A program made the position numbers and the translations under genes. The notes under the pieces are model-generated. The model was given only the letters and a program-made list of their open reading frames with translations, had not been told where the DNA came from and ran no database searches. A stretch of 30,386 nt of DNA from a virus, in IMG/VR virus record IMGVR_UViG_3300025889_000620, positions 1 to 30,386 of that record; one strand, 5' to 3'. This document shows, one piece after another, positions 13,240 through 14,255 of this stretch (its first letter is position 1; each line of letters starts with the position of its first letter).

Positions 13240-13268
13240 TTTACAAATAATATAATATATGGTAGTAT
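13240..13268 (+). promoter_or_regulatory. Promoter of the hammerhead-winged-helix unit
   Basis: TTTACA (13240-13245), 17-bp spacer, TAGTAT (13263-13268) preceded by TGG. Predicted +1 near 13275, about 12 nt before the ribozyme. No upstream element was found at 24, 34 or 44 bp. Confidence 0.75.
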
Positions 13269-13286
13269 ACAAACATAATAATTAAT

Positions 13287-13335
13287 CTGTCTCTGATGAG
13301 TCCGTAGGGACGAAACCCCGAAAGGGGTCAGACAG
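13287..13335 (+). ncRNA. Type I hammerhead ribozyme in the 5' leader of an mRNA
   Basis: All invariant core parts of a hammerhead are present in order. Stem I is CTGTCT (13287-13292) with AGACAG (13330-13335). The core is CTGATGA (13293-13299). Stem II is GTCC (13300-13303), loop GTAG, GGAC (13308-13311). The second core strand is GAAA (13312-13315), whose last A pairs with T13328. Stem III is CCCC (13316-13319), loop GAAA, GGGG (13324-13327). The cleavage-site base is C13329. All stems are fully paired. Ends lie in stem I, so type I topology. Cleavage would leave a 5'-hydroxyl at A13330, 47 nt before the winged-helix ATG. Hammerheads are known in some phages; activity here is inferred from the intact core. 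Confidence 0.9.
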
Positions 13336-13345
13336 CAATACTGTC
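13331..13345 (+). other. Alternative post-cleavage 5'-terminal hairpin
   Basis: GACAG (13331-13335), loop CAATA, CTGTC (13341-13345): a 5-bp hairpin that uses the 3' strand of ribozyme stem I. CTGTC is a second copy of the stem I 5' strand. After cleavage and release of the upstream fragment, this hairpin would sit one base from the new 5' end. Confidence 0.6.
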
Positions 13346-13376
13346 AATTTTGAAACTGAAAAGAAAGTGACTTATT

Positions 13377-13622
13377 ATGACAAAGACTGAACGCGTTCTC
13401 ACCGCACTACAGAATGGTGAGCAGCTTACTGTGAAGCAGATCCGTGCACGTTTTGGCGTTGCCAATCCGACCGCACTGATTAACCACCTTCGTCAGAACG
13501 TCGGTATTGCTATTTATAGCAATGCTCGTACGAATAAGGGTGGCGAGACACGGAACTTCTACCGCATCGGTACTCCTTCTCGTGCAGTCGTTGCAGCAGG
13601 CTATCGCGCACTAGCTGCATAA
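13377..13622 (+). CDS. Small winged-helix-like DNA-binding protein (81 aa)
   Basis: An 81-aa basic protein. MTKTERVLTALQNGEQLTVK is helix 1 and the lead-in; QIRARFGVANPTALINHLRQ gives a helix-turn-helix, and GIAIYSNARTNKGGETRNFYRIG forms the wing. Fold and size resemble small phage winged-helix proteins, common in marine T4-like phages, with no assigned role known to me. Codons are mostly C- or T-ending in a style that suggests strong expression. It is the only gene in a unit bounded by its own promoter (13240-13268), a self-cleaving leader and a terminator (13627-13689). The ribosome site is weak (AAGAAAGTG before ATG), so leader processing could matter for its translation. Confidence 0.75.
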   Translation: MTKTERVLTALQNGEQLTVKQIRARFGVANPTALINHLRQNVGIAIYSNARTNKGGETRNFYRIGTPSRAVVAAGYRALAA

Positions 13623-13626
13623 TCAA

Positions 13627-13689
13627 AATAGGGGAGCGGAAACATCATTCTCCTTATCATCAACTTTTCCGCTCCCCTATTGACTTTTT
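13627..13689 (+). terminator. Rho-independent terminator with a long loop
   Basis: A perfect 16-bp inverted repeat: AATAGGGGAGCGGAAA (13627-13642) and TTTCCGCTCCCCTATT (13666-13681), with a 23-nt loop, followed by ACTTTTT (13683-13689). It lies just after the winged-helix stop. The loop bases 13645-13656 are complementary to 13689-13700 over 12 nt. The minus-strand side has an adjacent AAAA run, so it may work in both directions. Confidence 0.8.
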
Positions 13690-13707
13690 AAGGAGAATGA
13701 TTATATA
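13680..13707 (+). promoter_or_regulatory. Probable hsp20 promoter
   Basis: TTGACT (13680-13685), overlapping the terminator's right arm, a 16-bp spacer and TATATA (13702-13707). Predicted +1 near 13714, which would put the transcript start immediately before the two leader hairpins of hsp20. Confidence 0.5.
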
Positions 13708-13714
13708 TAGTAAT

Positions 13715-13766
13715 GAGGATGCCTGATGGGTCCTCTACTATTAACCTTGCTAATTAGGAGGTAACT
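13715..13766 (+). promoter_or_regulatory. ROSE-like RNA thermometer in the hsp20 leader
   Basis: First hairpin: GAGGA (13715-13719) with TCCTC (13731-13735), extended by two C-G pairs. Second hairpin: TTA/TAA (13741-13743 with 13762-13764), a bulged A, CC/GG, T-A, T-G, a G-G mismatch (13749/13757), a bulged C and T-A around the loop AATT. The Shine-Dalgarno AGGAGG (13756-13761) is wholly inside this hairpin. TTGCT (13747-13751) facing the Shine-Dalgarno with a G-G pair is the hallmark of ROSE elements (UYGCU). These melt on heating and allow translation of small heat-shock genes. Function here is inferred. Confidence 0.7.
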
Positions 13767-14255
13767 ATGGTTACTAAGCAAAATATTGCGACTCTTCGCA
13801 ATCTCGATCCATTCTTTGTCGGCTTTGACCGCTTTTTTAAACAAATCGAATATCTTGACCGGGTAGACGCGTTCACTCGGCCTCAATCATATCCACCCTA
13901 TAATATTATTAGCATGGATGATGATCGTTATCAGATCGAACTGGCAGTTGCTGGTTTTTCTGAGGATGATCTTGATATCGTTTATCAAGACAGCAAAATC
14001 TCAGTTATAGGGGAGATAAAAAGAGAGGATGGAGAATCAGGAAGCGTACTACACAAAGGAATTGCAAACAGGCATTTCGCCCGACAGTTCACTCTTGCCG
14101 ACACTATCGAAGTGGAGGGAGCGGAACTTAAAAACGGTATGCTCATCATCTCACTCAAAAACATCATCCCAGATAGTAAGAAGCCTCGCCAAATTAAAAT
14201 CGCGGCCGGAGGTCAGACTATTGAAGGGAAAAAGGAACTCTTAACTGAAGGATAG
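13767..14255 (+). CDS. Small heat-shock protein, Hsp20/alpha-crystallin family
   Basis: A 162-aa protein. Residues 12-30 (LDPFFVGFDRFFKQIEYLD) match the N-terminal segment of IbpA-type small heat-shock proteins (F-VGFDR). The alpha-crystallin domain covers about 43-145, with YQIELAVAGFSEDDLDI, RHFARQFTLADTIEVEGAELKNGML and ISLKNIIP, the last strand ending before a short charged tail. These chaperones hold unfolding proteins and are common in marine T4-like phages. The start ATG 13767 has a strong AGGAGG five bases away, buried in a ROSE-like hairpin, implying heat-regulated translation. Near the C-terminus the usual I-x-I motif is approximated by IKI. Confidence 0.93.
   Translation: MVTKQNIATLRNLDPFFVGFDRFFKQIEYLDRVDAFTRPQSYPPYNIISMDDDRYQIELAVAGFSEDDLDIVYQDSKISVIGEIKREDGESGSVLHKGIANRHFARQFTLADTIEVEGAELKNGMLIISLKNIIPDSKKPRQIKIAAGGQTIEGKKELLTEG

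What the first reader, a model, noticed from the sequence alone, without database searches (positions are those of the whole stretch)
13240..13689. Self-cleaving hammerhead leader on a monocistronic phage mRNA, with a 5' hairpin that forms after cleavage
The window shows a complete type I hammerhead (13287-13335) about 12 nt after a predicted start site, then an 81-aa winged-helix gene and a strong terminator. The 3' strand of stem I (GACAG 13331-13335) is also complementary to a second CTGTC at 13341-13345. So cleavage after C13329 could release the leader and let the new 5' end refold into a 5-bp hairpin, with a 5'-hydroxyl and one unpaired base. Known: 5' hairpins and non-triphosphate ends affect RNase E/RppH-type decay. 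Inference: the ribozyme converts the primary transcript into a stabilised mRNA, or exposes the weak ribosome site.
Basis: partly seen in the sequence, partly recalled or inferred. Interest (0 to 1): 0.92.

Follow-up and report, generated by a model that had tools for sequence, protein, structure and literature searches.

The report
Self-cutting RNA leader with swappable caps
A marine phage places a tiny self-cutting RNA (a hammerhead ribozyme) just before a small DNA-binding-protein gene, and in relatives the piece that becomes the new front end of the message is either a short hairpin or a larger, apparently undescribed structured RNA that also sits alone among phage tRNA genes, which gives phage ribozymes a testable job as RNA end-makers.

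Summary
The hammerhead is real. All core positions and three helices are present at 13287-13335, random windows almost never give one, and relatives show compensatory changes. It scores below Rfam's cut-offs. The CTGTC duplicate is real too: in nine distinct relatives CTGTC is invariant while the hairpin loop changes from 5 to 8 nt, always directly upstream of the winged-helix gene. So both halves of the observation hold. The mechanism is only partly supported. Folding shows a switch: the hammerhead is the best fold while transcription has reached 13335-13344, then the hairpin fold wins, so cutting must be fast and co-transcriptional. Start-codon accessibility is predicted to rise after cutting. 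The same CTGTCT/AGACAGC hammerhead also heads a covarying, pseudoknotted 110-190 nt RNA, absent from Rfam. It is found upstream of this gene in some relatives and, one copy per phage record, inside phage tRNA arrays. Leaders are swapped between genes encoding identical proteins. Best reading: the ribozyme makes a defined 5'-OH end on an exchangeable structured 5' cassette; the window carries the minimal hairpin version. Stabilisation or translation control is inferred, not shown.

The parts
13240..13268 (+). sigma-70-like promoter, TTTACA-17 nt-TAGTAT with TG before the -10; predicted start near 13275
   Evidence: 9 of 12 matches; the ATAAACATRATGA-like segment after the -10 is kept in relatives with unrelated upstream DNA
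13287..13335 (+). type I hammerhead ribozyme, cleavage predicted after C13329
   Evidence: covariation over 15 relatives, score 0.203 against at most 0.062 when slid
13287..13292 (+). stem I, 5' strand CTGTCT
   Evidence: compensatory CTGCCT/AGGCAG in L017 and G-U in L223
13330..13335 (+). stem I, 3' strand AGACAG; becomes the new 5' end after cleavage
   Evidence: sequence almost invariant even where stem III varies freely
13331..13345 (+). post-cleavage 5' hairpin GACAG-CAATA-CTGTC (5 bp, one unpaired 5' base)
   Evidence: -5.7 kcal/mol; CTGTC invariant in nine distinct short-form leaders while the loop is 5 or 8 nt
13377..13622 (+). 81-aa winged-helix protein (PHROG 4973, unknown function)
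   Evidence: Pfam HTH_39, just under cut-off; pLDDT 85
13627..13681 (+). strong GC hairpin followed by GACTTTTT, likely terminator
   Evidence: self-complementary stretch; kept in relatives

Best explanation
A type I hammerhead at the very start of the transcript cuts itself during transcription and thereby makes the mature 5' end of the RNA: a 5'-hydroxyl end that folds at once into a structured 5' element. In the window that element is a 5-bp hairpin which captures the 3' strand of stem I. This makes cutting effectively irreversible, hides the new end, and removes the upstream strand that could otherwise pair with the start region of the winged-helix message. In relatives the same ribozyme makes the 5' end of a larger pseudoknotted RNA, used either as leader of the same gene or as a separate RNA in tRNA arrays. 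Shown by sequence: the ribozyme, the hairpin, their conservation, and the exchange of cassettes. Inferred: in vivo cutting, protection of the end, and the effect on translation.
For: The hammerhead core is complete and helices covary. CTGTC is invariant in all short forms while loop and flanks change; of 96 distinct places matching the hairpin pattern, only nine have a hammerhead core, and all nine read into the winged-helix gene family. Folding of growing transcripts: the hammerhead is the best fold for ends 13335-13344, and the hairpin fold from 13345 on. Predicted unpaired probability of the start codon region rises after cleavage in the short forms tested (window 0.34 to 0.66; L003, L005, L006, L088 similar). 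The long RNA always follows a hammerhead, including hits from a scan that did not ask for one, has covarying helices (score 0.319 against at most 0.100 slid), and occurs once per record in 13 phage records. Precedent: the halovirus HF1/HF2 hammerhead lies 13 nt upstream of a start codon and the mapped mRNA 5' end falls within 3 nt of its cleavage site (PMC3088659). 5' hairpins stabilise some bacterial mRNAs by blocking 5'-end-dependent decay (PMC3997798).
Against: No experiment. Stem I is a plain 6-bp helix with no identified loop I-loop II contact, so cutting at cellular Mg2+ may be slow, and the hairpin would then win first. Long-form leaders show no clear gain in start-region accessibility (L007, L015, L074). 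The downstream CTGTC did not change with the compensatory stem I change in L017; it pairs there only through a G-U. Many relatives of the gene have no ribozyme. Fold energies ignore tertiary structure and pseudoknots.
Confidence: 0.5

Rival explanations
1. A timing or regulatory switch: the hairpin is mainly an anti-ribozyme element. If transcription outruns cleavage, CTGTC captures stem I and leaves an uncut, poorly translated RNA; if transcription pauses or a factor helps, the ribozyme cuts and the message is translated.
For: The best fold flips exactly when the CTGTC arm is completed at 13345. The uncut short-form RNA is predicted to pair its 5' part with the start region.
Against: No pause site or ligand domain was identified in the window form; the long-form leaders lack the CTGTC arm yet keep the same ribozyme.
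Confidence: 0.2
2. RNA separation: the ribozyme cuts read-through transcripts of the upstream tRNA genes away from the following RNA or mRNA, as theta ribozymes are proposed to do next to phage tRNAs.
For: In the window a tRNA-Thr ends 70 nt upstream; in tRNA arrays the ribozyme often starts a few nt after a tRNA. tRNA-adjacent theta ribozymes are known in phages (PMC10879173).
Against: A promoter lies between tRNA and ribozyme in the window and relatives; L003, L007, L015, L016, L017 and L088 have no tRNA directly upstream; the cleavage site is about 40 nt inside the downstream RNA, not at the tRNA end.
Confidence: 0.15
3. The window leader is a decayed remnant: the hammerhead belongs to the larger structured RNA, a deletion removed that RNA, and the hairpin is residual.
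For: Short and long forms share AGACAGC at the 5' side and TTTTGAAACTG at the 3' side; L094, L223 and L404 look intermediate.
Against: The CTGTC arm is invariant across short forms that differ in flanks and protein clade, and the ribozyme core is intact in all, which a remnant would not need.
Confidence: 0.15

Closest known systems
Type I hammerhead ribozymes of bacteriophages and prophages (PMC3088659)
   Same: Same core, same helix order, phage setting, near gene starts
   Different: Scores below Rfam cut-offs; plain 6-bp stem I; followed by a conserved re-pairing arm or by a conserved structured RNA
HHphage of haloviruses HF1/HF2 (PMC3088659)
   Same: Hammerhead in a 5' leader directly before a phage gene; mapped 5' end near the cleavage site
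   Different: Archaeal virus, variant hammerhead analogous to one that needs high Mg2+, before a helicase operon; no exchangeable cassette reported in the passages read
Theta ribozymes of gut phages (PMC10879173)
   Same: Self-cleaving ribozymes associated with phage tRNA genes
   Different: HDV-like fold, cleavage next to the tRNA, proposed role in tRNA maturation
5' stem-loop stabilisers of bacterial mRNAs such as ompA (reviewed in PMC3997798)
   Same: A hairpin at the extreme 5' end
   Different: Those keep the primary triphosphate end; here a ribozyme would make a 5'-OH end first

Membership tests
Hammerhead ribozyme (sequence definition) | CUGANGA and GAAA core, NUH cleavage site, paired N1.1-N2.1, N10.1-N11.1, A15.1-U16.1, three helices | tested here: met
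Hammerhead ribozyme (sequence definition) | helices maintained by compensatory change | tested here: met
   99.5% of cells paired, four pairs with two-sided change; stem II never varies in that set (L204 has a paired change there)
Rfam Hammerhead_1 / HH9 / Hammerhead_3 | score at or above the curated gathering threshold | tested here: not met
   best 24.5 bits (HH9) against 52
Tertiary-stabilised (fast) hammerhead | loop I-loop II contact or pseudoknot | tested here: inconclusive
   no conserved contact seen by inspection; no 3D test available
Hammerhead ribozyme (functional) | self-cleavage after H17 giving 5'-OH and 2',3'-cyclic phosphate | not testable with these tools
   needs in vitro transcription
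5' stem-loop mRNA stabiliser | longer mRNA half-life that depends on the 5' hairpin | not testable with these tools
   only the hairpin itself was tested
Theta ribozyme | HDV-like double pseudoknot fold | tested here: not met
   hammerhead core instead; no HDV-type Rfam hit

The most novel reading that the evidence does not exclude
Large tRNA-rich phages carry a previously undescribed family of ribozyme-born RNAs: a CTGTCT/AGACAGC hammerhead that makes the 5' end of a compact pseudoknotted RNA. It serves as a stand-alone non-coding RNA in tRNA arrays and has been co-opted, in long or minimal hairpin form, as an exchangeable 5' cap for a winged-helix mRNA.
Probability: 0.5. Interest if true: 0.78.

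Novelty: new variant of a known kind. Interest (0 to 1): 0.64.

Why it matters
What phage hammerheads are for has been open since they were found in large numbers. Here one is tied to a single gene family, to a conserved element just behind the cut, and to leaders that naturally swap with the protein unchanged. These natural variants (ribozyme plus hairpin, ribozyme plus long RNA, no ribozyme) permit direct comparison of RNA stability and translation. The long RNA is not in Rfam and looks like a new phage RNA family.

Tried and rejected
Generality of the stem I duplicate over 84 hammerhead families: 8 hits against 5.9 after swapping downstream DNA, so not general. Duplicate as a target-site duplication of an inserted element: not favoured, because tRNA-array copies lack it. 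Long RNA in bacterial genomes: 11 pattern matches, none with a hammerhead next to it and model scores at most 18.6 bits, so treated as chance. Long RNA in named phages: only a 26-base chance-level match. Long-RNA model on the window's own record: no match. Rfam on loci with the long RNA and with the other leaders: no family match to those elements. Close named relatives of the window: none by megablast; the DNA polymerase is 45% identical to marine T4-like and Synechococcus phages. Solved-structure search by sequence: no hit. Outer extension of stem I beyond 6 bp: not kept between relatives by inspection.

Full report
Observation. The sequence at 13287-13335 is a complete type I hammerhead: stem I CTGTCT/AGACAG, core CTGATGA, stem II GTCC-GTAG-GGAC, GAAA, stem III ACCCC-GAAA-GGGGT, cleavage after C13329. 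The same scan on 400 first-order-Markov random windows, both strands, gave one hit. Rfam does not call it: the best clan score is 24.5 bits for HH9, threshold 52. The hammerhead label therefore rests on the sequence definition and on covariation, not on Rfam.

Covariation of the ribozyme. Across 15 relatives (14 distinct) 99.5% of pair cells are standard pairs; four pairs have two-sided changes; the covariation score is 0.203, against at most 0.062 when the partner strand is slid. Stem III varies freely. Stem I shows CTGCCT/AGGCAG in L017 and a U-G in L223. L204, outside that set, has a paired change in stem II (GTTC/GAAC).

Setting. The window is a 30-kb virus record with a T4-like replication module: clamp, clamp loader, translation repressor, DNA polymerase, UvsX-like recombinase, DnaB-like helicase. 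The polymerase is 45% identical to marine T4-like and Synechococcus phages; no close named phage was found. Upstream are tRNA-Asn and tRNA-Thr and a promoter-like site. Downstream is an 81-aa protein with a predicted winged-helix fold, then a strong hairpin, then hsp20.

The hairpin. GACAG 13331-13335 can re-pair with CTGTC 13341-13345 (-5.7 kcal/mol). Nine distinct leaders carry hammerhead plus AG(A/G)CAGC-N-ACTGTC, with loops CAATA, CAAGA, CGAAGTGA and CAAATTGA; all nine lead into the winged-helix gene family. In an eight-sequence alignment ACTGTC is invariant although the DNA around it is not. Pairing is kept in L017 and L223 through G-U pairs. This is good evidence that the arm is selected. 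It is not general: among 84 hammerhead families in the fetched phage DNA, 8 have a 5-nt re-pairing arm, against 5.9 (sd 2.2) expected.

Folding order. For transcripts ending at 13335-13344 the hammerhead is the minimum-energy fold (-20.0 kcal/mol). From 13345 on, the hairpin together with an alternative pairing of the stem I 5' strand wins; the full leader also folds that way. So the ribozyme has a short window in which to cut, or the hairpin limits it. After cutting, the hairpin should prevent religation. Predicted accessibility of the 18 nt around the start codon goes from 0.34 to 0.66 on cutting in the window and changes similarly in L003, L005, L006 and L088, but not in the long-form leaders L007, L015 and L074. 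These are secondary-structure estimates without tertiary energy, and the first four loci are near copies.

The larger family. In other relatives the segment after the same cleavage site is not the hairpin but a structured RNA of about 110-190 nt: AGACAGC-P2-ACCTTRTGGTGTA ... AGGTNCTGAGGTTAGA..ATCCGATA-P4-GTGTAGGCATCC..AAACCAYA. The TGTGGT in the P2 loop pairs with the 3' ACCACA and covaries (GGTGGT/ACCACC, TATGGT/ACCATA). For the whole structure, 84% of cells are paired and the covariation score is 0.319, against at most 0.100 slid. It lies upstream of the winged-helix gene in L007, L015, L074, L075, L081, L083 and copies, and within tRNA clusters in L102, L109, L133, L188, L198, L204, L207 and L211. 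A covariance model finds exactly one copy in each of 13 phage records, no good match in the fetched bacterial loci, and none in the window's own record. Every good copy follows a hammerhead, including those found by a pattern that did not include one; in L204, L209, L211, L075 and L175 stem III of that hammerhead is greatly enlarged. It matches no Rfam family, and no paper listed by the searches made here is about it; the library holds only open-licence papers, so prior description elsewhere cannot be excluded.

Cassette exchange. On a tree of 46 winged-helix proteins the five leader classes need 14 changes (least possible 4). Identical proteins carry different leaders: L212 (hammerhead plus long RNA) and L213 (hammerhead plus hairpin); L218 (another structured leader) and L221 (hammerhead plus long RNA). 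Some ribozyme-less relatives carry other structured leaders at the same place, such as H-type pseudoknots in L012, L073 and L215. Hence the leader is an exchangeable module.

Mechanism. The common denominator is a hammerhead that sets the 5' end immediately before a structured element. The most economical reading is that the ribozyme manufactures a 5'-OH, structured end, which would not be a substrate for RppH and would lack the monophosphate that stimulates RNase E (established knowledge; 5' hairpins are reported to impede RppH and to stabilise some mRNAs, PMC3997798). In the window it also detaches the 5' leader that could pair with the start region. HF1/HF2 give a precedent for a hammerhead-defined mRNA 5' end (PMC3088659). 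I put this at 0.5; the rivals are a kinetic switch, separation from tRNA transcripts, and a remnant of the long RNA.

Unexplained. The stem I sequence CTGTCT/AGACAGC is nearly invariant in phages whose P2, P4 and stem III differ widely, although any complementary pair would serve the ribozyme. This suggests that the AGACA end itself has a role.

Limits.

Noticed in passing
L102, L109, L133, L188, L198, L204, L207, L211, L175, L007, L015, L074, L083: Hammerhead-headed, covarying pseudoknotted RNA of 110-190 nt, single copy per phage record, mostly in tRNA arrays, not in Rfam.
   Followed up: yes
L148 4112 (counted on the minus strand), L151 1284, L101 996: A second hammerhead-headed conserved RNA (GGCCCATTA..TGTGAATGGGACAAGGCC..GGATACGAAGCC) in phage contigs where no tRNA was found; its P2-like loop can pair with the 3' end (GAGAGG/CCTCTC, GCTGGG/CCCAGC), the same layout as the first one.
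   Followed up: partly
13644-13655 and 13690-13701: The loop of the hairpin after the winged-helix gene (ATCATTCTCCTT) is perfectly complementary to AAGGAGAATGAT just downstream; relatives L007, L074, L019 and L073 keep such complementarity with other sequences and registers, so a terminator-spanning pseudoknot is likely.
   Followed up: partly
13713-13772: Leader of the phage hsp20 gene matches the ROSE_3 RNA thermometer below threshold (28.3 bits, E 0.001 over 701 bases); the stem covaries in relatives (GAGGATGCC/GGGTCCTC versus GAGAATGCC/GGGTTCTC).
   Followed up: partly
L012, L014, L073, L215 (just upstream of the winged-helix gene): Alternative leaders without ribozyme form an H-type pseudoknot (CCGAGA..GAAGTAAGG..TCTCGG..CCTTACTTC) followed by a T-rich run.
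   Followed up: partly
L078, L218-L228 (upstream of the winged-helix gene): Another conserved structured leader (ACACG..CCTGC..CGTGT..GCAGG..GACG..CGTC) with a strand order reminiscent of a pistol ribozyme; no Rfam match in L078.
   Followed up: partly
L129, L137, L155, L156: Phage contigs with several hammerheads each, spaced between genes, often a few nt before a start codon; this resembles the clustered hammerheads reported in prophages.
   Followed up: no
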